35,442 nucleotides of DNA from Coprinopsis marcescibilis (taxonomy: Eukaryota; Basidiomycota; Agaricomycetes; Agaricales; Psathyrellaceae). Of this stretch, positions 759 through 34,688 are shown piece by piece. The stretch is from positions 1 through 35,442 of the forward strand of contig ML210264.1 in the NCBI GenBank assembly GCA_004369085.1, read 5' to 3'. Under the pieces are notes generated by a model. That model had not been told where the DNA came from. It did no database searches and worked only from the letters and a program-made list of their open reading frames with translations. The first letter of the stretch is position 1. Every line of letters starts with the position of its first letter. A program made the position numbers and the translations under genes.

Positions 759-2764
759 ATGCCCGCCTTCACTCACACCCCCGCTCGAACCATGCGGATG
801 GTCCTATCCTACATCCCCGTGCTCACCGTCGCGATTTCAGCGATGGGAGTACACGCCACTAGCCTGGAATCCCGGGCCCCAAACCCAGATGGGCTGTAAG
901 TTCGCTGGTGTTCATCTCACCTGGAACAACCCTAACGTTTGTCTACCTACTACATTTTGCCAGTGAAACGGTATATTTAATGCCAAGAATGGATGCCGTC
1001 AACGATGCCAGGCAGAAAATCGGGCAGGATGCCAAGTACCTGTCAACCGAGGAAACAAAGAAGTTGCGCCCCGGTTTGGAGAATGCGCTGGATAGCAGCC
1101 CACTCAAAAAAGGTCAGGACGGCGTCATCTCGTCGAAAGACCTCGCAGGCATCGACAGCAAACCGACCGGAGACCGCAGACCTCCGGGAGGTCCATCCGC
1201 GCCAGGAACGAATGTTGTGAATGACTCGGCTCCGGGCAGATCTGCGCCAGGTGGGGGCGTCAATGATATCAAGGGCAAACTGGGGTCGGATGGATACTTG
1301 CCGAAGGAAGATGCGGCGAAGCTCAAGCCAGGCTTGCAGAATACGTTGGATGGGAGCTCAGTCAAGAATGATAAAAATGTCAAGGACGGGAGGATTTCGG
1401 CGGCAGATCTTTGTGCGAGGGACGGAGCGGCTTGTGCATACAAGCCCAGGAAGCCCGCCGAGAATGCAAAGGGGCAAGGAAGCCCCTCCGTACGTCCCAC
1501 GCAGCGACAAGCTGGACGAGCTCAGAAATCCGTGTCTGGCGGAAGCAGACCTGCCAAAGCGTCGACAAGGAATGGTTGGAGTCGTGGTGCAAACCGAGCA
1601 GGGGGGAGAAACCGTTCAGGAAGCAGTTCCAGAGGCGCGGGCAGCAGGAGGAATGAACAATCAAGGGGTGGTCGAGCAAAGGGCAGTGGAAATAGTGGTG
1701 CCGGAAGAAGAGTCAGGGCAAAAGCTCGATCTGGGAGCACCAGAGGCGCGGGTGTTCGAGCGAGTAGACAACAACCGGCACGTTCGGGAGGAGCTGAGAG
1801 ACAAGGTGGCCGAGCGAGTTCAAGACCGGGTCGTTCAGGTCGCACCAGCCATGGTAGCTCAGCATCCAGGGGCAACCGTACGCCAAAAGGAAGACAAACA
1901 AGCGTAAATTCCTCCACAAAATCCAACGGCCGACCGAGATCCAAGACTACCACGAGAAGCCAAAGGCCAGGGCGTTCGACTGGAGCACAGGGTGGCACGA
2001 AAACGTCGAGTCGGACCAACAGAACTTCTGGTGGCAGATCTGCGAAGCGAACCCCATCAAGTCGCGGCAGAGAGCAATCGGCCACTAATAGAAAAAGCTC
2101 AGCAGCTCGACCACAGCCAGGACGCCAGCGGGGTACTGGAGCCAACAGATCAGGTTCGCGGGGAAATAGATCAGCAGTTGGTGGCCAAAGGAAGCGACAA
2201 ACGTCAGCGAGGAAGCCAGCAGCGAGCCCTTCAGCACGTAAGCCCGCGGGAAGATCAGGACAACGAAAGCCAGCAGCCAGATCGTCAGTTCGGAAACCCT
2301 CAGGAAGACCAGCACAACGCAAGCCAGCCGGGAGACCTGCACAGCGTCCTGCATCGAAACCAGCGGGAAGGCCAGCACAGCGTAAACCAACTGGTAGACC
2401 GGCACAGCGAAAGCCAGCGGGGAGGCCAACACAACGTAAACCAGCAGCGAGATCTTCAGCACGGAAACCCCCAGCCAGGCCAGCACAACGCAAGCCAGCC
2501 GGGAGACCTGCACAGCGTAAACCAGCTGGTAGACCGGCACAGCAAAAGCCAGAGGGGAGGCCAGCGCAGCGAAAGCCATCTGGGAGACCAGCACAGCCTA
2601 AGCCAGCATCGAAACCGGCAGCAAGACCGGCACAGCGCAAACCAGCAGGAAAACCAGCAGGAAGACCGGCACAACGTAAACCATCAGCAAAGGCCCAGCG
2701 TAAACCAGCACCTCGACCAGCAGCAAAACCAGCCCCACGGGCAGGTGGGGGAAAGAAAAAATAA
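759..2764 (+). CDS. Secreted Lys/Arg/Pro-rich repeat protein (2 exons)
   Basis: Exon 1 (759-895) starts at an ATG and encodes a basic N-terminus followed by a hydrophobic stretch (VLSYIPVLTVAISAMGVHA), a convincing signal peptide. The intron at 896-963 has a GTAAGT donor, a CCTAACG branch site and a CCAG acceptor, and it keeps the frame into exon 2 (964-2764). The product is about 645 residues. After the signal come two related blocks of about 40 residues, each ending in an EF-hand-like DGxIxxxDL (QDGVISSKDL and KDGRISAADL). Their calcium loops are incomplete, so binding is doubtful. The remaining 450 residues are Ser/Gly/Arg-rich and then become tandem variants of GRPAQRKPA, ending in AGGGKKK. 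I do not recognise the family. A cationic wall-, polyanion- or membrane-binding secreted protein is inference. Two paralogs lie at 22330-23280 and 34999-35442. Many open frames on the opposite strand are composition artefacts. Confidence 0.8.
896..963 (+). other. Spliceosomal intron in the secreted repeat-protein gene
   Basis: The intron is 68 nt, with donor GTAAGT, branch site CTAAC at about 932-936 and acceptor CAG. Removing it joins the signal-peptide exon to the long repeat frame; without splicing the frame stops at the TAA inside the donor. Confidence 0.85.
2230..2750 (+). repeat. Coding tandem repeat (GRPAQRKPA units)
   Basis: Units of roughly 27-30 nt encode variants of GRPAQRKPA and SARKPAGR. 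A higher-order duplication is visible. The stretch beginning AGCACAACGCAAGCCAGCC at 2311 recurs at 2482, a spacing of 171 nt or 57 codons, with similar flanks. Such arrays usually expand and contract by slippage or unequal exchange. Confidence 0.85.
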
Positions 2765-4735
2765 TTATCAACTCGTCAGATCTGATCAATTTTCTCAGCG
2801 ACCCCACAATCGTTTTATTTACATATTTATTTATTTCCTATATTTATTTGATTCCAAGCAAGGAAAGCGGCAAACCTGATGGATTCGAAGAAAGGCAGCA
2901 AAGGTGCTGGCGACCCCTAGTACGTATTCAAACGCTACGCCAATTATTCCATCGGCGGACAGTGTCCTGATCACATTGGTCTCTGAATCCAGGTCCGCCC
3001 GGAGGGCCTTACCTATAGATAAGACAACAGATAAGATCTCAGGCACCTCCCATGTACTGGACCTGCCGATGCCGTGTGATGGTATGATGGCCCAGGCTCC
3101 ATTGTGATGGGCATCCGCAAGAGGCTCGCTTGAAGGTTTAATCCCACTGGATAAGTCCTGCCATAGAAGCGGCCCAGAAGAGACACATCGCGAACTTTCC
3201 CAATGCACAATAGGTGGTCATATCTCTGCGGTCTCTGCAAAATCAAGTCCGAAGTACTTAGTAAAATTGGATTACGGGCACCAATCTGGACGAGCGCTTA
3301 CTGACTCCATTTGACTTATGCATCCAGGTACCAGCAAAATCGATGAGATAGAGGTAGATGTCTACCCTACTCATGTCAAAGAGTCGCCATCAGCTTACAA
3401 TCTACGGCTGCCCTTGATACAATGGGATTCCTGCCAGGTCCCGGGACTGCCGTCCGTACGCTGGAACGCTCGCCCGTGGTGATCGCTCCTCCTAGTCACC
3501 GGGAATGGGATCATCGTTATGTGGCCAGCTTGTATAATATGGAGGGCTCCTTCTCCCTGTACCCCATGCTTGGGGGTTTCCGCTGGGTGATATCAATTAT
3601 ACATCGTATGCATGCTGTCGCCAAGTTGAATTCAGATGTTCGCACAATTTATGACTTTTTTCGACTGTTCTTGTTCTGGTTGAACAGTTAGCAGATATTA
3701 GTACCAGTAAATCCGCTACAGTGTTCTGGCCGCGCACAACTGTGCGCAATCCAAGATTTAAATGACGGAAGTGGCAAATTTTAATCAATCCAGGCGGCCC
3801 TTAATTCGTCAATAGACGCCCATGTGTGAATGTTCCCATGTACTGTCAGGGTCTCTGTGATGCATTCAAAGTGTCCACGAGCAATGCAGAATAAGCTCAT
3901 CGATTTACATAAAACCGATGAAAGGATTCTGACAGATTCATGCGCTTTTTAAAGCGTCAGCCATTACAATTACATCCAATGTTTCATGACAAATAATCAG
4001 GTACATAGCTGCGGAGGCGCATCATGTGTACGAATCAGTACGATTGATAGAAATTTATTAATAAACTCGGATGTACTGGAGCGCCGATGTGTCGATAAGA
4101 GTGAGATAGGCGCGCAATACTGGTATCTTGTCCTTTCGGGCGTCGGTATTGGCAAAATTTATGTGCCAAGATGTTTCAGCGAAGGAAAGCGACCGGTAAC
4201 AGAAAAACTGCGCTTGTAGAATCACCCGATTTGGGTCATAGAATCCGCCCTTGTAAGTTGTAGGGGGTTGCGATTTACTGCTAACTTTCTGCTGGGTACC
4301 CTAATTTACATACATGTTTTCTAGTACCTCAAATTGGCAGGTAGATTAGCAGTCAGCACGTAATTTACCGCATAAGCTTACTCACAAAGATCTGGCTCCA
4401 CAGTCAACTGTCACACTGACTGTTTGGCGCCCTCCGTGGAAGCCTGGACTCTGGAAGAAGGTGTCAAGCTTTAAAAAGCCTGTATACATCTCCGTTTGGC
4501 TAAATTATACGGGCGTTTTGACTTGCCGTGTTACAAGCCAAATTAAGTAGAGTAGATTTATAGTCCTTCATTTATATTGTGGGTGGTGTTCTTTCGATTT
4601 CCCCGCGACCAACCTCAGCGCTTGAAACAAACCGCCAAGGACGCATTTACTCCAATTATCGCCCAAGTTTCTTACATTCGAACCTCCCTTGTATTCAGCT
4701 GCAGTGTTATTTCATCCGGTCAGAGTCAGTGCACC
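2765..4735. other. Gene-poor region
   Basis: The first 120 bases are an AT-rich 3' flank of the repeat-protein gene with TTTATTTATTT runs. A 125-codon minus-strand frame around 2831-3208 has no recognisable domain or supporting exons. Nothing else here can be supported as a gene. Confidence 0.5.
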
Positions 4736-7080
4736 ATGACCTCTTCCAACGACACATCCTGCGTTGCTGCAAATCCGGACATCGCAGGGTACGGCGTCAT
4801 GGTCGCAATCACCGCTCAAGCCGCCTCCTCATTCGTCGCCCCACTCCTCTCCATCACAGACGGAAAACTCACCCCCGAAGAGAATAAGCGCATCTCCAGT
4901 CTTCCTATTGTCAACAGCATCTACCTCTGCTCCCTCGTCGTCACCGGCATCGTCCAAGCAGCCCAGAACCAGCTGAGCGCTTACCACGGCATCATGATCC
5001 TCAACATGGCATGGGAGCTAGAAGGATACCTGATCCTCAGCCACCATTTCATCGACCACGGCTTGGGCCGCTGGTTCCACGGTGGCTCATCAGCGATGGA
5101 CGTCGTACAGGCCGGATCCGTCATGTCCGTGATGCTCTCGATCTCGCGCATCGTGCTGGGCGCATGGGGGGTCACACTCTCCGTGCTCACATTCGCACGC
5201 AAGCTGACATGCGTGGAACGCACCGTGATAGTTATCGTCCATCGCGGATGGGTAGTGCGCATGGGGGACCCGCGGGCTCAGATAGCCTGTGGCATCTTGA
5301 ACGGGCTCAGAGGCATATTCGGGTTTTTCAGTCTAGCTCGGGATTTCCGCGGGGCGAGGCCGAAGGAGTCGCCGCTGGGCAAGCGGGGAACTCGCAGGCA
5401 CAAAGACTGGCACGAGCTTGCCGACACCGAGTGCCCCAATTCCGGCGGGGAGGATAGAGATAAAGGAGATGCACATGCCACTCGGGACGTGGCCGTCAAC
5501 CGGTGGGTTATCGCCTTTCGGGGACTTGGTGCCTTCATCTTCTGGGTATGCCTCGTCATCACCACATACACCACTCGGTCCAGGAACATTGACACAAAGG
5601 TGGTCTCGGAGGGCGAGAATGATTGGGGGTACGGACAAATCTTGGCTCTGTGTTTGGTGGCACATCCAGTCCTTCTGACGATACGAGTACGAGCTGTGAG
5701 GGAGTGGATTCGTGCCCGGTGCAGGAGGAAGGCGGTCGGGGACACCGGCATTCGGAAGCGAGAGTCAGAGTACAACGTACGTGCATTTCATCCTGGATCT
5801 TTGATAATTTTGGTTACTCAATTCGGTGTGGTATATCCGTTGGGGGAATGTGCATCGATACATCAGCAACCCGCAAGTAAGGCCGAAGTGATGAAACTGA
5901 AGACTGTGGAGACCGAAGAAATAAAGTCCCCGTTGACCACCAGTGAAGGCATGAGACACCGAAAGTTGTCAAATATGGTGCGCGGCTCAAAGCAGGTCGT
6001 CCTTCCAGTCTTCTAAACAGCTGTTGGAAATGTACAGGGAGGCCTTGATGCCCCGAAAGGCTCGGAACGTGTCAAATTTCCCACAGGGGAGGTGAGTACC
6101 TTGTCTCTTTGGGTAGGTCTTCATGACGCGAGCACCTATTCATTACCTTTTCAGTCTACAGTACGTTCCTTTCTCTGTTATCATCCTATTTGGCATAGAT
6201 AGGTCAATGTCCCCACCTTTCAGGAAGTAAGCACGCCTCTTCAATCCGAAATATCTGACCTGACAGAGTGTATGTTGTTCCTACCATTATGTCGAGCGCA
6301 CGGCACTTACCGTTGTTTGTTCTAGATCATCTTTAACTATTCTTTCTATCAGGCACAGACGGTACGTTTGACCCCCTATATGGTTGTTGACTGTGCCCAC
6401 CACTAACACCCCATGTTTTTTTAGTATATCTCATGCACAAATGTACGTCACTCTCCCTTTCCATACAGCTAGAGCCTTCTGCTAAACTCGGGGCACCGCA
6501 CATAACTCTGACAATCTAGATGGTGCGTACTACGCCCATATATAAACTTAACGTGTTCTAAGAAAAACGGCTGCAGATAATCAATACTGTAAGTACTATC
6601 CCAACCTTTGGTGCTCCACCAACGCCCTCATATACTGTTGTGCCTATATCAACTTGCGTCCACAGTATGTGCGTATCTTGGGCCCAAGCCACACCGACCA
6701 TAAATGCTGATGACCCAACGCAATCCGCAACATCTCAATATACAGTACGTAAGTGTCGCCGTTCGCACATCATACAGCACTGCCTAGAGCCCTGATCTTT
6801 CGTCCAGAATCAACCTGTGAGTACACGACCCTCCCGCCTGACGAATCCCTCCCAACGTCGTATCGGTAACCAGCCAGACACCACGAATCAGGGGTCAATT
6901 CCTTGGCAAATAGCACAGCAAATGCAGTCGAACGCGTTCCCGCAAAGCTATCCAACCTATGCCACGGCAAACACAGCCATCCCAGCTGTAGTCGTCACGG
7001 GCCCTGAACCCTCCCCCAGAGCCTTGGTGTTCGGCTCTCTCAACAACGACTCGGAAGAGACACTCACAGGTCTGGATTAG
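4736..7080 (+). CDS. Multi-pass membrane protein with a micro-exon 3' half
   Basis: The start is ATG 4736 in a good context (CACCATGAC). The large first exon encodes a membrane protein with NPDIAG at residues 13-18, which I recall as a hallmark of a large uncharacterised fungal membrane-protein family. Hydrophobic segments lie near residues 16-40, 56-77, 84-103, 125-155, 257-277 and 298-316. The loop near residues 205-250 is charged. An in-frame 90-nt intron (5777-5866, GTACGT...CAG) is possible but optional. An intron at 5978-6037 (GTGCGC, branch TTCTAAAC, TACAG) avoids the stop at 6014-6016 and opens an 18-codon exon (6038-6091). A string of tiny exons follows, then a final exon at 6874-7080. 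The spliced product is about 502 residues, with a Tyr/Asn/Gln/Ser/Thr/Pro-rich tail. If the 5978 intron is not removed, the protein simply ends at 6016. The N-terminal half is certain; the tail model is inferred from splice signals. Confidence 0.7.
6092..6873 (+). other. Micro-exon array: ten exons of 3-36 nt between phase-0 introns
   Basis: Reading along the strand, each tiny exon sits between a YAG acceptor and a GTRNGT-type donor. The exons are 6155-6160 (6 nt), 6224-6226 (3), 6267-6269 (3), 6326-6361 (36, or 6353-6361 with a nearer acceptor), 6425-6442 (18), 6520-6522 (3), 6577-6588 (12), 6666-6668 (3), 6746-6748 (3) and 6808-6816 (9). The introns are 63, 63, 40, 56, 63, 77, 54, 77, 77, 59 and 57 nt. 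Clear branch sites include CACTAAC and CTTAAC. Every exon length is a multiple of three, every junction is phase 0, none adds a stop, and the chain enters the last exon (to 7080) in frame. Any exon could therefore be skipped without a frameshift. The 40-nt intron is the weakest. Confidence 0.65.
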
Positions 7081-8632
7081 AGTGCGATGCACTTCAGGTT
7101 CGTACAACCACATTGAACCTCCGCCAGTGGTCTCGACGCTAATCGAGAGGATAAGGCTTGAAAGGCAAAAGCCAGTTTTGCGACACTGTTGCTACAAAGG
7201 CAACATTCATTTCTGTGCAGTGGGTAGCTAGCTAGCTACATACGCATGTACATTGTTGGAATTTGAGATTCCATAGGTTTAACGTCGACTTACGATCGAC
7301 GAAGTAATGGTAGCTCAGATGCTACAGATGCTACTGCAGACATGTTATAAAGGCTCCAAAGAATGCCCATTCACTAAGGTATATAATGTATTTAAACGAA
7401 CTTTTGTCTTGTATACCTCGCTTTGTATTTATGGACCAGCTCTATATGAGAGAGGAATGGTATGAATGGGAATGTCATGAATGGGACCGAGATGGAGAGG
7501 AACAAGAAGGTAATGGTGTGAATTGAAGCGGCATGAGAGGGGTCTCAAGCATCGCTGGGATGGAACGCCTGACCAAGATCGAGCGAAATCCTACGACGAA
7601 GGGCCCGGGGATGCGAACAATCGTGCAGACACTGGAAGGAGGATGTGAAGGAGAAAAACGGGAGAGAGTGCAAGGATGAGGAGAGTGGGTAGGGAGAGCC
7701 TACTTCGAGTGGATAGAGGGAGGAATCAGGGAGCGAGGGAGCGAAAGAGCTCGCAAAATATATACTGGGAAGGGCATAGACGAACTTGAAGATCTACATG
7801 ACATGATGGGAAGTCAGCGAGACAGGATAGATGTGAAATAGCAAAACAGCCATGGGATTCGTTTACACGAATCCCCGTAACACGGCCTGTCTGCTTTTAA
7901 ATGAATCCGTTTATTCCCATCTATACAGAAGTACATGGATGGCCGACAGGGCAGAAACTGGAAACTGGAATAAACGCTCAATCAACGCCAAATAAACGCC
8001 GAAATTGGTCAACACATTAGATGTTACAGGAAATAGGAAAGAGCCGGAGCGTCCGTTGGGACAAAGCCCTAGCTCTACGCTTGGCACGCGGGCTCAGACC
8101 TCGCTGGAGCCGCCATTTAGTTAGGGCTCAGGTCAGCGAGGATATGCAATGGTAATAGATATGGACGTCCACGTGCTTAATTACTCTGTTTTCTGAATGG
8201 AAACAGTCATCCCCGAGCAGATACATGCTTAACAGCAGTGATATCTCAATTTCTGAAATACCTTTGATTCTCTAAGCTCAGTAGTCTTGCATATCGCGGG
8301 TGAACTATCGTAAACGCTACACAATCGATACAATCCAACATTGTACTTGTCCGGCTCACGTACTTCAAACTTGAATATAGGTTTTCACAATCGTAATCCG
8401 GGACTGTTCACGAATCTATCCAACTCCAACTTCTGAAACCAATGAGCGGGTAAGATGCTATTTAAAAACACGAAAACCGCTAACGGTAATAAAATCATAC
8501 AACGCACGGGCGTATTCAACTAAAACAAAACGGTACAAATTCATTCCTATTACCACCAATTGATCATTCATCAATAATCATTCCGACACCCAACACCCAC
8601 CCAAGGACATCGCGACCGAAATACTCACCACC
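7081..8632. other. Intergenic region with a purine-rich tract
   Basis: No gene can be supported. From about 7440 to 7760 the plus strand is strongly purine-rich (repeated GAGAGG, GGAGGA and GAATGGGA runs) with no long open frame. From about 8400 to 8610 the sequence resembles 14110-14345, the 3' flank of the F-box gene; this is described separately. Confidence 0.5.
8458..8610. repeat. Copy of the F-box gene 3' flank
   Basis: This segment aligns by eye with 14170-14345. Shared strings include ATCATACAACGC, ATTCATTCCTAT, ACCACCAAT and CCCAACAC in the same order, with small indels and roughly three-quarters identity. It lies immediately beyond the stop codon of the farnesyltransferase gene. Together with the exon copy at 11287-11366 it marks an old duplication. 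Confidence 0.6.
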
Positions 8633-13568: not shown

Positions 13569-14488
13569 CGCATATGCTGGGCGATGAAGGAGAAAGAAAG
13601 AAAGAGATACAGTGGGCGACGCCGGAAGCTGCACAAGGGACTGTGGGCTTTTTAGTCGATAGCAACCAACTTGGTGAAATCAAATGAACACCACCAACAT
13701 AAATACCACTCATCTGTTCTGTTGACCGGTATGTGTGGACGACCAACGCGTGGGCGCCCGAGATGAGCATAGCCAAGCTCTAGGGTTTCGGTGCGTGATA
13801 TAAATGAAAGAAGCCTTGGAGGGAGTAGATCAAGTACATATCTACTCTTTTCAGCTGAGCAGCGGCGGATGAGGATCTTCACAGAGATATGTGCCTGATT
13901 TTATACGCATCTCGGGGATGAATAGAGGTCGGTTCATTCCCATGGGAAGCGTTGTACATGTATGTTGGTGTGGGCGCGTGGAAGATATCACAAGCGGCCC
14001 GCCGGCACTCCCAGACCTGCTGGCCCGCTTTCGTACCCCGTCCAACGCAAAAGCGGCTGGACGAGAAATGTCAACTCACAGCTCGAATGCATACCACTCA
14101 GCACCCAGCGCCTCGCACATAGTAGTAAGTCAAGACTCACGACCCACAGAAACCCCCTGGGCGGCCAAAATGGTATTCAAAAACACACACCGCAAACGGC
14201 ACTAATAAGATCAAAATCATACAACGCCCAGACAGGCATACTACAAAAATGTTACAAAAATTCATTCCTATCTTCCGTGATCCCACCAATCCAGCATCCA
14301 TCGTCGATCATTCCAACGCCCAACACGCACACAACCACCAATCCAGCACCCATCGTCGATCATCCCAACACACACACCCAACACCCAACACGCACCCATT
14401 ACCCGAGCCGCACTCCCAAAAGCGATCAGCCACATGCGATCATCTACATAATCTTATCCTATCGGAGAATGGCGCCTTTAATCAAATC
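13569..14488. other. Intergenic region and F-box gene 3' flank
   Basis: No gene is seen. From about 14110 to 14345 the sequence is the 3' flank of the F-box gene that recurs near 8400-8610. The stretch at 14290-14400 is a C/A-rich, partly self-similar tract with repeated CACCCATCGTCGATCAT-type and CCCAACAC strings. Confidence 0.5.
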
Positions 14489-16542
14489 CTAGGGCCTCGC
14501 AAGCGGGTTCGTCAACGGCTTGCGAGGTGGCGGCACACCAGGTGTCTGCGACCTCCTCGACAGCAGCACTACACAAATAACAGAATGAGGCAACACCCAC
14601 ACAAAATCGACGCGATAAACGCACCTTTTTTCAAACCCACAGTCAAACTCGAGCTGGCGCCTACACCCGAAGTCCTCACCCCACCGCCACCTGAGGTAAT
14701 ACTCCCAGAGCTCGAATGAGAATGCATGTTGCTCCTCGACCTAAATCCACACACATAGCTCGGCAAATCAACTGTGGTTCTCATCGACATTGGCCGCTCT
14801 TCCTCCTGCAACCCCACATCCAACCTATCCCCACCAAACACCAACGGTTCCAAACTCGGTGCACCCTCTGCACCTCCCTCATTCCCAAAATGCGCAGAAA
14901 CAGCCCCACCCACATCCCCACCCGCACCCGACCCCAAACTCCTCCTCCTACCCCCAAAGAGCCCATTCGGCGGACTAGGATTCTGCCGAACCGTAACCCA
15001 ATCATCATGGATCCACGACACATACCCATTCGTCAACGTCAAATCCAACCCCCCACCGCCCTGTCCCACCGCCCCCGCGCTCAAGCCCTTCAACGCAACT
15101 TGCACCTCCCGACTCAAATTAACACCACTCGTCGATTCAATATACACCCTTTCCAGCTTCGCAACTGGAGCACAACCCGGTATTCGCACCGCACCCGTGC
15201 GGACCTCGAGCATCGTCTGCAAGGCCCGTCCACTCACATCAACAGGTCCGCTATACTCCAACACCCGCAATTTCGGGACCAGCGGTTTGTCAAAGACACC
15301 GTAGCCGCCACTAGGCGTCCCAGACCCAACCAACGCACCCAGAAACACATCCGAGATAAACATACCCTGCGACGTCTTGGGATACTCCACATGCAACACA
15401 AGCTCCTCCAACCCCGGCATAACCTCCAAACAATCCACCAACTCCTCCTCCACCAACCTTACATTCACAACCTCCATCCTCCTCACCCCTGCTCCTGTCC
15501 TTGCCCCGCACGCCGAACGCCCCTCCCCACCCCCATACTGCACCCCCCGCCTTACCAAATCCACCACACACCCCATCCCAAACCTCTCCCGATCCTCAAA
15601 ACTAAACCCCAACCCCACACAAACCTCTTCCAACCGCGGCACAACCAACGACCCCAACACCGCCCTCGCCACCCCATTCCCCACATTCCTCACCTCCAGC
15701 CTCCTCAGCGCCTCCAGCACGATCGCCTCCCCCGCTGCGTACACAAACTCGCCCGCCTGGTGCACGCAGTCCAGCCGCACGGCCTGCAGCGCGGGCGCTG
15801 CGCGCAGGGTGCGGTAGCACTCGGACACACTCAGGTCCTGCGCGGAGAGGTGCGTGAGGTTGGACAGGGGCAGCTGTGGCCCGCTGGGGGGCGGGCAGAG
15901 CCCTTTGAGGGCCAGCCGCACCAGATTCGGCGCGTCCGCGAACAGGGCCGCTGGGTGCGAGGTCTGCGCATGCAGCCCATCCGGCGCACGCAGCGTCAGC
16001 ACCTGCAACAGCGGCAGAGCCCCGCCTTGCCCGCCGTCTATGGCCCTGTGCATGCACGCGAGGTCGGGGTAGCACAGCGCAGGGATGAACAAGTCGGCAC
16101 TGCGCCACCGCCGCGACGCACCAGCAAGCAGCCGCACCACCTCGCGCGGCGGGTGCATCTCCCACCACCCCGCCTCCGCATCCTCCGCATCCCCCTCCGC
16201 ATCCCCCGCGCCCTCCCCACGCCCACGTAGAATAACATCAAGCGGTCGCCCCCCGCTGCGCACCACCAGCCACTCGCGCAGCAGGGCCACCTGCGTGGGG
16301 TAGTGCCGCGGGTGCAGCGTGAGCGTGAGGGAGCCCCAGAGCTCCGGCGCGCCCTGCGTCAGCACGCGCCAGTGTGCGCAGATCTTGGCGAAGAAGAAGG
16401 GTGTGAGGGGCGTGTGCGGCGGGGTGTACGCCGTCCAGTGCGTGCGCGCGGGGGGCTGCAGCACGCGCGTGAAGATGTCGATGATGAGCTCTGGCGGGAG
16501 CTTGGTCGTTAGAAGATCTGTTTGGCGGGGCCGGGGGTGCAT
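14489..16542 (-). CDS. F-box protein (2 exons, about 665 aa)
   Basis: The start is ATG 16542 (MHPRPRQTDLLTTK), directly before a good F-box-like motif, LPPELIIDIFTRVLQ, at about residues 14-28. FFFAKICAHWRVLTQGAPELWGSL follows, the usual continuation in agaricomycete F-box proteins. The middle contains irregular leucine-rich segments (LPLSNLTHLSAQDLSV, MPGLEELVLHVEY). Such proteins link substrates to SCF ubiquitin ligases; the substrate is unknown. An in-frame ATG at 16890 would add 116 poorly conserved-looking residues. A 56-nt intron at 14569-14624 (GTGCGT...TGTAG) joins LTVGLKK to a last exon ending LTNPLARP. Unspliced, the frame stops exactly at the acceptor TAG. The exon copy at 11287-11366 supports the spliced model, because the frame and stop of that last exon are conserved there. 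Confidence 0.88.
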
Positions 16543-22329: not shown

Positions 22330-23280
22330 GCTCTAGGCTTTTACATCCAGAGGGGTGGAGCGAGTTCAGCAGCAGCTCGTCCTCGTGCTGGCGGTAGAAG
22401 TCAAGGGCTTGGTGGAAAGGACAGGCAACCGACCCGAGCCAACCAAGTAGAGGGCACGGGTGGCACTCGTAGAGCACTGGGTGGTTCGGCTTGAAAACCT
22501 CCTGGACAGAGAGGCGGCAGAAAGGTCACTGCGGCTCGGGGAAGGGGTATGAAGCCAGGCACAGCGAATTCACGAGCCAGGCCGACGAGACAGTCTAGGA
22601 ATGGTGCAGCCGGAGCTACTTCCAGGACAGCGAAACAGCCCGCGAACAAGGGGAAAGGCGGCGCAAGGAAACAGCCAGCGCGACCAAGTGCGAGACCAGG
22701 ACGTTCGAACGCAAAAAAGGGACGGGTTGGGTCTGCACGAAGGCCTGCGGCAAGACCTAGACCTTCAGCTCGGAAGCCATCGGGGAGATCTGCACAACGT
22801 AAGCCAGTGGGGAGACCAGCACCACGATCAACACAGCGAAAACCTGCAGCGAGGCTAGCACAACGAAAATCAACACCACGGTCAGCACAACGAAAACCAA
22901 CACCACGGTCAGCACAACGTCAACCAGCAGCGAGGGCAGCACAACGTAAACCAGCCGCGAGGCCAGTACAGCGTAAGCCAGCGGCAAGGCCAGCACAGCG
23001 TAAACCATCAGCGAGACCAGCATCACGTTCACCACAACGTAAACCAGCGGCAAGGCCAGCACAACGTAAACTGGCAGCGAAGCCAGCACAGCGTAAACCA
23101 GCATCTCGACCAGCAGCGAGACCTGCACCAAGAAAACCTGCACTGAAGCTGGCAGCGAGGCCAGCACCACGGAAACCACCAGCAAGACCACCAGCCAAAC
23201 CTGCGCCCCGAAAACAGCCTGCAGCAAAGCCTGCGCCGCAGAGACCTGCATCTCGAGCAGGTGGTGGAAGGAGAAAGTAA
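22330..23280 (+). pseudogene. Second Lys/Arg/Pro-rich repeat-protein copy, 5'-truncated and stop-interrupted
   Basis: From ATG 22549 an open frame of 243 codons encodes the same kind of array as the 759-2764 gene (SARKPSGRSAQRKP, RPAQRKPAARPAQRK) and ends RAGGGRRK. The same frame is open and already Arg/Gly-rich from about 22330, broken by a single TGA at 22492-22494 (GGSA-stop-KPPGQRGGRK). One C-to-T change from CGA (Arg) would explain that stop. No signal-peptide exon or EF-hand-like blocks are recognisable upstream. It is either a decayed 5'-truncated copy or, if translated from 22549, a non-secreted basic protein. The 3' flank has the same TTTATTTATTT character as the other copies. Confidence 0.6.
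22780..23250 (+). repeat. Coding tandem repeat of the second copy
   Basis: Short units encode RPAQRKPAA and relatives. A near-perfect direct repeat with AACGAAAATCAACACCACGG around 22862-22885 recurs about 24-27 nt later, encoding successive RKSTPRSAQ and RKPTPRSAQ units. This suggests recent slippage. Confidence 0.75.
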
Positions 23281-33141: not shown

Positions 33142-34688
33142 TTAATCGTCGCCGATCTTGGGAGCGAGGTAGTACCGGATATAACCTGGTCCAAAATCAT
33201 ACGAAACCTAAAAATATTTGATCAGAAACGCGTCCGATTCGTACATGAAAAAAGAAAGAAAGTGGGCCATAACGGCACGAATAATAAAGGACAAGGGACT
33301 CACCAGCAAAGGCACATCGCCGCTCATCATGAGCTGCACATTCTTCGACAAGCTCGTGCTCTTGGCAAAGTTGACGAGGTACTTCAAGGAAAAGGTGAGC
33401 GAGACGTGTTGGTTCATCTCGACCACGACGCCGTCCGGTCCATCATCTTCGCTCTTGCTCTTGCCCTTTCCTTTCGACGTGGACGTCTTGGCCTTTTTGC
33501 TCGGCTTGGCGCTGCTGCTCTCCTACATAGCGCACATTAGATAGGGTAGAGAGCGAGAGTGGTAACGAGACCGCACCTTTTTCCTCCTCTTCTTCCCGCT
33601 GCTCTCTTCGTCGTCCGAATCTGCATCGGGCTTCTCCTCCTCGCCCTCCTCGTCAGATTCGGGCTTGAATTCTTGCTCTTGCTCCTCCTCTTCCTTGTCA
33701 TCCATGTCAACATCCCCATCGTCCTCCTTCTTAACCTTCTTGCTCTTCCCGCCCTTCTCCTTCTTGACCTTCCTCTTCTTCTTATCGCCATCCTCATCAT
33801 CCTCATCGTCATCATCGTCATCTTCCTTCTCCTCGTCCTCATCGTCGTTCCCATCCTTGGGATCGGCAACCAGGGGATCGCCACTGGTGATCACACCCTC
33901 AGTCTGCTTGAGGAGCACGTTCCCGTTGGCCGCCTCGCCCTCACTGGCGAACCGCACACCCTCCTTGCTAACCTCAATACGCACGCTCTCCCCCAGCTGC
34001 GACAGATCCCGCACAATACGGGCAAACTCGGCAGCGGGCATCGTCACGCGCGCGTCATACGCCGTCTCCGGGATGGACAACTGGTCCGAATCGATCTCCA
34101 TCAGCTTCATCTCATACTCCGCAATGCGATCCGAGCCTACAAGCGATGTGGTCAGCGGGAGGAACACACGCACGCGTCAGGCGCGTCGGGGAAGACAAAG
34201 GACGACGACGATGCCACGGCGCAAAAAAGGGAGGCGGGCGTACCTTTGGCTTCGTAGACGAGACTGAGCAGGTCGGCTTCGTCACCGGCTTTGAGCGTGC
34301 AGATGTCGTCGTCTTTCGCGCATTTGAGGACCTTGGTGAGGCTGTTGAGGTTCACGCCCAGCTGCATGGGCCGGTCGCAGCGGAACTTTTTGAACCCTGA
34401 GGCCTGCAGTTTCACAGCGACGAGCGCGACGTGCGAGTTGTCCATCGCCTGCAGCTGGAAGCCCTCCTCGTTGGCGGTAAAGTTGGCGTCGGTGACGAGT
34501 TCTTTGATAGCTGCAATGGAAAGTGAGTGAGCGCGACAGGTCCAGATTTTCAGTCCGAGTGAAAGGGAGGGAGGAACGGGGAGGAACGGGGAGGAACGAG
34601 GAGGAGAAGATGGGGATGGGTTACGGGAATGCGTACCATCGAGCAGCTTCTTCAAGAGGCCGGCTTCTGCGAGCTTTGCTTCGAGCAT
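33142..34688 (-). CDS. PCNA: Proliferating cell nuclear antigen, enlarged (5 exons, about 387 aa)
   Basis: This is the sliding clamp of nuclear DNA replication and repair, a ring-forming homotrimer. Exons are 34688-34637, 34510-34244, 34136-33577, 33522-33304 and 33207-33142; the introns (126, 107, 54 and 96 nt) all keep the frame. The start is MLEAKLAEAGLLKKLLDA. Visible landmarks are LQAMDNSHVALV, FRCDRPMQLGVNLNSL, DRIAEYEMKLMEIDSD (interdomain connecting loop, the partner-binding site), IVRDLSQLGESVRIEVSKEG with the lysine equivalent to K164, VSLTFSLKYLVNF, and the C-terminal RYYLAPKIGDD. The usual length is about 260 residues. Here about 125 extra residues, first acidic and then Lys-rich, sit between NGNVLLKQTEG and VVVEMNQHVSLTF in domain 2, and one intron lies inside them. 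Confidence 0.97.
33440..33880 (-). repeat. Acidic/lysine-rich low-complexity insertion in PCNA
   Basis: Long Asp/Glu runs (KEDDDDDDEDDEDGD), Lys-rich NLS-like strings (KKKRKVKKEK, KKRRKK) and a Ser/Lys stretch (SAKPSKKAKTSTSKGKGKSK) occupy the place of a short surface loop around residues 185-195 of ordinary PCNA. The opposite strand is correspondingly CTT/CCT-rich and shows spurious open frames. Confidence 0.85.

What the first reader, a model, noticed from the sequence alone, without database searches (positions are those of the whole stretch)
6092..7080. A chain of ten symmetric micro-exons, five of them a single codon, in a fungal membrane-protein gene
Seen: eleven consecutive GTRNGT...YAG introns of 40-77 nt separate exons of 6, 3, 3, 36 (or 9), 18, 3, 12, 3, 3 and 9 nt. 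All are multiples of three, all are phase 0 and none introduces a stop; the chain joins in frame to a 68-codon last exon. Established: exons below about 25 nt are hard to define for the spliceosome, and runs of symmetric micro-exons are known from schistosome micro-exon genes. Inference: this is an independently evolved fungal counterpart. Because every exon is symmetric, any subset can be skipped, giving combinatorial variants of a Tyr/Asn/Gln/Ser-rich tail. Standard gene finders would stop at 6016 and miss it.
Basis: partly seen in the sequence, partly recalled or inferred. Interest (0 to 1): 0.92.

Follow-up and report, generated by a model that had tools for sequence, protein, structure and literature searches.

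The report
Chain of codon-sized exons in mushroom
A gene for an uncharacterised membrane protein in an inky-cap mushroom (Coprinopsis) seems to spell part of its tail with ten tiny exons, five of them a single codon; the pattern is far beyond chance and resembles a splicing trick reported in truffles, but no RNA data were available to prove it.

Summary
The score is 33.9, against at most 13.3 in 912 tiles of the same genome and 10.5 in 1,000 shuffles. All ten exons are multiples of three although the search did not ask for it. The genome is that of Coprinopsis marcescibilis (Agaricales): the closest paralog is NCBI protein FA15DRAFT_707173, with one intron and no micro-exons. The predicted product is a membrane protein of 493 or 523 aa without a Pfam family. 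Most likely this is a real micro-exon array spliced by intron definition, where symmetry makes skipping harmless; combinatorial tails are possible but untested. It is not the first fungal case: truffle NACHT-ANK genes are reported to splice tens of 3-bp exons alternatively (cited in PMC4986451, PMC3689799, PMC10197012), and a basidiomycete gene with ten micro-exons is published (PMC9142197). New here are the phylum and gene family with one-codon exons. No RNA data and no ortholog were available.

The parts
4736..5776 (+). 5' coding exon: 347 codons, several hydrophobic stretches, start of an uncharacterised membrane protein; the ORF stays open through 5977
   Evidence: Translation and hydropathy; paralogs on C121, C226 and C55 of the same genome; Pfam none.
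5777..5866 (+). possible 90-nt phase-0 intron (GTACGT...CATCAG); frame stays open if retained; the paralog's single phase-0 intron also sits at the end of its first exon
   Evidence: Frame cannot decide; the alignment at the exon ends is too weak to prove homology of position.
5978..6037 (+). 60-nt intron (weaker donor GTGCGC) that removes the stop 6014-6016; in both paths found from the 5' ORF to the chain in phase 0
   Evidence: Path enumeration, 2 of 2 paths use it.
6038..6091 (+). 54-nt symmetric exon (18 codons)
6155..6160 (+). micro-exon 1, 6 nt
   Evidence: sampled probability 0.89.
6224..6226 (+). micro-exon 2, one codon
   Evidence: Sampled probability 0.78, the weakest of the ten; preceding intron lacks a good branch site.
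6267..6269 (+). micro-exon 3, one codon
   Evidence: Sampled probability 0.90.
6353..6361 (+). micro-exon 4, 9 nt; alternative acceptor at 6325 gives 36 nt (6326-6361), another at 6358 gives 3 nt
   Evidence: 0.82 for 9 nt, 0.11 for 36 nt, 0.06 for 3 nt.
6425..6442 (+). micro-exon 5, 18 nt
   Evidence: Sampled probability 1.0.
6520..6522 (+). micro-exon 6, one codon
   Evidence: Sampled probability 1.0.
6577..6588 (+). micro-exon 7, 12 nt
   Evidence: Sampled probability 0.998.
6666..6668 (+). micro-exon 8, one codon
   Evidence: Sampled probability 0.997.
6746..6748 (+). micro-exon 9, one codon
   Evidence: Sampled probability 0.996.
6808..6816 (+). micro-exon 10, 9 nt
   Evidence: Sampled probability 0.85.
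6874..7080 (+). last exon, 68 codons plus stop; the acceptor at 6873 keeps the frame, a tandem AG at 6877 (preferred by the frame-blind search) does not
   Evidence: only copy found in the genome.

Best explanation
A protein-coding gene of Coprinopsis marcescibilis for a multi-helix membrane protein has a C-terminal tail interrupted by eleven short introns that leave ten symmetric micro-exons, five of one codon. Each intron carries its own donor and YAG acceptor, so the fungal spliceosome can pair sites across the intron (intron definition) and does not need the exon to be recognised. Neighbouring introns must be removed one after the other, because a 3-nt exon cannot hold two spliceosomes. 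Because inclusion of such exons is error-prone, only multiples of three in one phase were tolerated, so any skipping just shortens the tail by a few residues. Shown: the sequence pattern, its excess over chance, the symmetry and the frame continuity. Inferred: actual splicing, order, mostly constitutive inclusion, and origin by intron gain into a fast-changing tail.
For: Frame-blind chain search finds the ten exons, all 3n; score 33.9 against a background maximum of 13.3 in 912 tiles and 10.5 in 1,000 shuffles. YAG-N3-GTRNGY 6 against 0.098 expected; 0 on the opposite strand of the region. Introns have GC 0.48 against 0.57 in 4736-5977. 6 of 11 introns carry an in-frame stop, and of the 5 without one, 3 are not a multiple of three, so retention of 9 of 11 breaks the frame. 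The frame connects an upstream ORF to a 68-codon last exon through all ten exons and through every include/skip subset. The paralog's NCBI protein equals my one-intron model, which has a phase-0 intron at the start of the tail. Basidiomycete genes with several micro-exons and short introns are documented (passages of PMC9142197 and PMC1184071).
Against: No transcript evidence. Micro-exonic DNA is AT-rich, with GC3 0.30 against 0.71 in exon 1, unlike the rest of the gene. The linking intron 5978-6037 is weak (9.2 bits, below the 11.5 charged per intron), intron 2 has no good branch site, and the frame-blind optimum takes an out-of-frame last acceptor (6877). 65 of 100 perturbed models gave another chain; the commonest of these were shorter pieces or had exons 2 and 3 merged into a 46-nt, non-3n exon. 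The paralog has no micro-exons, and no ortholog was found, so conservation is untested. No protein of this gene was in the protein set at the lengths searched.
Confidence: 0.72

Rival explanations
1. Regulated diversification: exons are included or skipped in many combinations, giving a pool of tails, as proposed for schistosome MEGs and reported for truffle nank genes.
For: All 1,024 combinations stay open and give 768 distinct peptides; tandem or alternative acceptors at 6325/6352/6358 and 6873/6877; truffle precedent in passages of PMC4986451, PMC3689799 and PMC10197012.
Against: Skipping a one-codon exon needs a 106-157-nt intron (99 nt in one case with the alternative acceptor 6325), outside the 40-83 nt of this gene's chain; no known recognition role of the tail; symmetry alone is explained by tolerance of errors.
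Confidence: 0.25
2. Stepwise removal of one 782-nt intron: the sites act as internal splice pairs, and the tiny exons are later removed or rarely kept (recursive or nested splicing).
For: Micro-exonic DNA is AT-rich and its third codon positions differ from exon 1.
Against: A pure recursive scheme needs no multiple-of-three lengths; ten of ten 3n has a chance of (1/3)^10, about 1.7e-5; the in-frame link to both sides; no zero-length (AG|GT) site in the optimal chain although allowed.
Confidence: 0.1
3. Non-functional or decaying 3' part: the real protein ends at the stop 6014-6016, and the downstream array is a relic or untranslated.
For: The ORF 4736-6016 is open without any intron; weak linking intron; no protein record found that holds the tail.
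Against: A relic would not be expected to keep eleven scored introns and ten 3n exons without a stop; the last exon is open for 68 codons with GC3 0.60.
Confidence: 0.1
4. Chance: short splice consensus sequences happen to line up.
For: The consensus sequences are short and were searched with freedom of choice.
Confidence: 0.02

Closest known systems
Tuber melanosporum nank (NACHT-ANK) genes with codon-sized micro-exons (Iotti et al. 2012; seen only as cited in passages of PMC4986451, PMC3689799, PMC10197012)
   Same: Fungal gene with many 3-nt exons that leave the frame intact.
   Different: Ascomycete, NLR-type receptors, reported tens of exons and alternative splicing. Here a basidiomycete membrane protein without NACHT or ankyrin match, exons of 3-18 nt, splicing unobserved.
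Schistosome micro-exon genes (MEGs)
   Same: Runs of symmetric exons of at most 36 nt that can be skipped without a frameshift.
   Different: In MEGs most of the coding region is micro-exonic and the products are described as secreted or exposed to the host; here only about 4-6% of the coding region, in the tail of a membrane protein; no relationship shown or expected.
Ordinary basidiomycete micro-exons (bglA of Rhodotorula minuta: 10 exons under 30 bp, minimum 6 bp; P450 genes of Phanerochaete chrysosporium: exons of 2-10 aa)
   Same: Basidiomycete genes with many short introns and exons down to 5-6 nt.
   Different: The passages seen do not describe an all-symmetric chain or exons of one codon.
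Single-nucleotide exon of Fusarium CYP621A (PMC12940212)
   Same: Shows that a fungal spliceosome can include an exon smaller than 3 nt.
   Different: One asymmetric exon in a conserved motif, supported by SRA reads and orthologs.

Membership tests
Schistosome-type micro-exon gene (MEG) | Most of the coding region in short (36 bp or less) symmetric exons | tested here: not met
   69 nt (96 with the 36-nt exon) of roughly 1,480-1,600 coding nt.
Schistosome-type micro-exon gene (MEG) | Exons symmetric, so skipping keeps the frame | tested here: met
   10 of 10 exons 3n and phase 0; 0 of 1,024 combinations has a stop.
Schistosome-type micro-exon gene (MEG) | Protein variation by alternative splicing | not testable with these tools
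   No transcript data held.
Truffle nank-type codon-sized micro-exon gene | Several exons of exactly one codon | tested here: met
   5 of 10 micro-exons are 3 nt as sequence features; splicing itself not tested.
Truffle nank-type codon-sized micro-exon gene | NACHT and ankyrin domains | tested here: not met
   Pfam 0 families at E up to 1 for the predicted 523-aa protein.
Truffle nank-type codon-sized micro-exon gene | Alternative inclusion seen in transcripts | not testable with these tools
   No transcript data held.
Intron-definition micro-exons of basidiomycetes | Short GT-AG introns, each with its own donor, branch site and acceptor | tested here: met
   11 introns of 40-83 nt, 10 of 11 donors GTRNGT, 11 of 11 YAG; branch sites fair to good in most, poor in introns 2 and 8.
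Recursive splicing (zero-length exon) | AG|GT juxtaposed sites | tested here: not met
   Zero-length exons were allowed in the search and none was chosen.

The most novel reading that the evidence does not exclude
A basidiomycete has independently evolved a codon-by-codon splicing array: the exposed tail of a rapidly changing membrane protein is edited one to six residues at a time by choosing among ten symmetric micro-exons, giving up to 1,024 exon combinations (768 distinct peptides), possibly in self/non-self or biotic recognition, since one paralog lies beside a NACHT gene and another carries ankyrin-like repeats.
Probability: 0.15. Interest if true: 0.85.

Novelty: new variant of a known kind. 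Interest (0 to 1): 0.56.

Why it matters
One-codon exons in a row are an extreme test of how small an exon a spliceosome can handle and of the order in which neighbouring introns leave. If real, the same architecture has appeared in truffle immune-type receptors (Ascomycota), in schistosome surface genes and in a mushroom membrane protein, which would suggest that symmetric micro-exon arrays are a recurrent way to vary exposed peptides. It also points to a class of exons that gene annotation and ordinary read mapping are likely to miss.

Tried and rejected
Chance alignment of splice consensus: rejected by background tiles and shuffles. Origin by tandem duplication of an intron-exon unit: 55 intron pairs compared, best z 1.47, no support; only one weak 29-nt repeat pair. 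Transposed or repeated copy: one match, itself, in the genome. A similar cluster of GTRNGT on the minus strand near 14000-15050 (14 in 782 nt) is a TG-rich stretch that does not score as a chain (background). Micro-exon chains in NACHT genes of the same genome: no chain longer than 2 introns in 112 tiles of the 8 loci fetched, out of 82 matches listed (27,879 bases). Widespread micro-exons: in 218 kb without this locus, 25 candidate exons of 0-36 nt between two good introns, some overlapping; 12 were 3n, no strong excess. An attempt to train the intron model on ORF-flanked introns gave a mixed set of 96 and was dropped. HET-domain search gave nothing, but the control genomes were silent too, so it says nothing. 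Orthologs: two single-sequence searches gave none, and a profile gave only the genome's own paralog; the searches score only proteins sharing short exact words. Structure prediction without an alignment was poor (mean pLDDT 45), so no fold search was made. Pfam gave 0 families for this protein and two matches below cut-off for the paralog; PDB sequences 0; Rfam 0 in 4500-8000. Paralog tail against this tail: no similarity (156 of 300 shuffles reach the score).

Full report
Observation. Ten of eleven donors are GTRNGT and one is GTAAGC; all eleven acceptors are YAG. Exons are 6, 3, 3, 9, 18, 3, 12, 3, 3 and 9 nt; exon 4 may be 36 nt through an acceptor 27 nt upstream. The last exon has 68 codons and a stop.

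Chance. I scored candidate introns with a fixed consensus model (donor, branch site, YAG, pyrimidines; tables set from general knowledge of fungal introns, not trained) and searched for the best chain with exons of 0-54 nt, without any frame rule. The region gives 11 introns and the ten exons above, score 33.9; the last acceptor it prefers is 6877, 4 nt beyond the one that keeps the frame. The controls were 912 half-overlapping 900-nt tiles on both strands of about 218 kb of the same genome (tiles on the + strand around this locus left out), with a maximum of 13.3, and 1,000 dinucleotide shuffles, with a maximum of 10.5. With the penalty lowered the region scored 55.9 against 17.3. Sampling 4,000 chains gave 98.4% of exons as multiples of three and 84.7% of chains wholly so; the least certain exon is 6224-6226 (0.78). 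Perturbing the model 100 times gave the same chain 35 times and wholly 3n chains 76 times (some of them shorter pieces); other models broke the chain or merged exons 2 and 3 into a 46-nt, non-3n exon. The motif YAG-N3-GTRNGY occurs 6 times on the + strand (five exons and one alternative acceptor) and 0 on the - strand, with 0.098 expected; the twelve highest 782-nt windows listed all overlap this locus (this background includes the locus itself).

Gene model. The ATG is at 4736. The ORF runs to the stop 6014-6016. Among candidate introns only two paths reach the chain in phase 0, and both use intron 5978-6037, which adds the 54-nt exon 6038-6091; one also uses intron 5777-5866. Both paths score below zero net of the penalty, so this link is the weakest part of the model. 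The products are 523 or 493 aa with seven or six hydrophobic stretches, the seventh lying inside the optional intron. Retention of an intron breaks the frame or adds a stop for 9 of the 11 chain introns; introns 6092-6154 and 6817-6873 could be retained without harm. Introns are less GC-rich (0.48) than 4736-5977 (0.57). Against a coding reading, micro-exonic DNA has GC3 0.30 (exon 1: 0.71) and is poorer in GC than the introns. I cannot explain this fully; splice-site needs at exon edges may contribute.

Source organism and relatives. The assembly has 36.3 Mb in 448 contigs and 85 DUF6533 matches listed (that this family is typical of mushroom-forming fungi is recalled). A profile search found one protein, Coprinopsis marcescibilis FA15DRAFT_707173, whose longest contig is 91,770 nt, the length of C121, where the closest paralog lies. 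My one-intron model of that paralog reproduces the 443-aa record. So the genome is Coprinopsis marcescibilis, order Agaricales. The paralog has one phase-0 intron at the end of its first exon and a 77-aa tail in one exon, without similarity to this tail. A second paralog (C226) appears as one ORF, 562 aa from stop to stop; a third (C55) has ankyrin-like repeats behind the membrane part (read by eye). The stretches with these three paralogs (L006-L008) were among the background tiles, none of which passed 13.3. So among the 4 members found by two searches only this gene shows the array. The window gene's own protein was not in the protein set at 191-607 aa or about 288-915 aa. Whether it is unannotated or withheld in that set I cannot tell.

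Mechanism. Fungal introns this short are generally recognised across the intron (general knowledge; S. pombe work on intron definition is listed among the references of PMC11121469, seen in passages). This frees exon size but forces neighbouring introns to be removed in sequence around a 3-nt exon. Skipping one of the five one-codon exons would need introns of 106 to 157 nt, or 99 nt for one of them with the alternative acceptor 6325 (computed from the coordinates), so I expect inclusion to dominate and skipping to be tolerated. Tolerance alone suffices to keep every exon a multiple of three. Diversification is possible but needs transcripts.

Comparison with the literature. Seen: PMC12940212 (outline with abstract, introduction, discussion); passages of PMC11121469, PMC4986451, PMC3689799, PMC10197012, PMC4350168, PMC8293314, PMC9142197 (including part of its Table 3), PMC1184071, PMC11590231, PMC4014442 and PMC3990503. 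Other papers were seen only in search listings. Iotti et al. 2012 and DeMarco et al. 2010 are not held and were not seen. [quoted passage not shown] PMC12940212 reports a 1-nt exon spliced in Fusarium. My ten searches listed no paper that I recognised as reporting a basidiomycete gene with a row of one-codon exons; I opened only the papers named, and the library holds only openly licensed papers. I recall, unverified, a long-read annotation of Coprinopsis cinerea that discusses micro-exons.

Verdict. The array is real as a sequence pattern and very probably spliced. It is a new variant of a known kind, not the first fungal case, and its use for diversity is open.

Noticed in passing
G000 contig C226: 7919-8173 (-) and 8923-9405 (+); loci L003, L007, L033: The matched stretch of a single-ORF paralog of this membrane protein lies about 0.75 kb from a NACHT match on the other strand, the best NACHT match listed for the genome.
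   Followed up: partly
L008 (contig C55:41500-47500), minus strand: A paralog continues behind its membrane part into ankyrin-like repeats (read by eye); at reverse-strand position 3638 two good candidate introns abut with no exon between them, like a recursive splice site.
   Followed up: no
L025 minus strand 3059-3062 and L019 minus strand 3177-3183 (offsets): Isolated candidate micro-exons of 3 nt and 6 nt between two well-scoring introns in unrelated regions, suggesting that single tiny exons may be scattered through this genome.
   Followed up: no
window 2213-2733 and 22774-23215: Two separate arrays of related 27-nt and 39-nt repeats with similar units (AAACCAGCAGCGAGACCAGCACAACG-like) inside long ORFs 863-2764 and 22495-23280, 20 kb apart; perhaps a repetitive protein family.
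   Followed up: no
window 33523-34176 (-): ORF with a PCNA C-terminal domain match and a BUD22 match below its cut-off.
   Followed up: no
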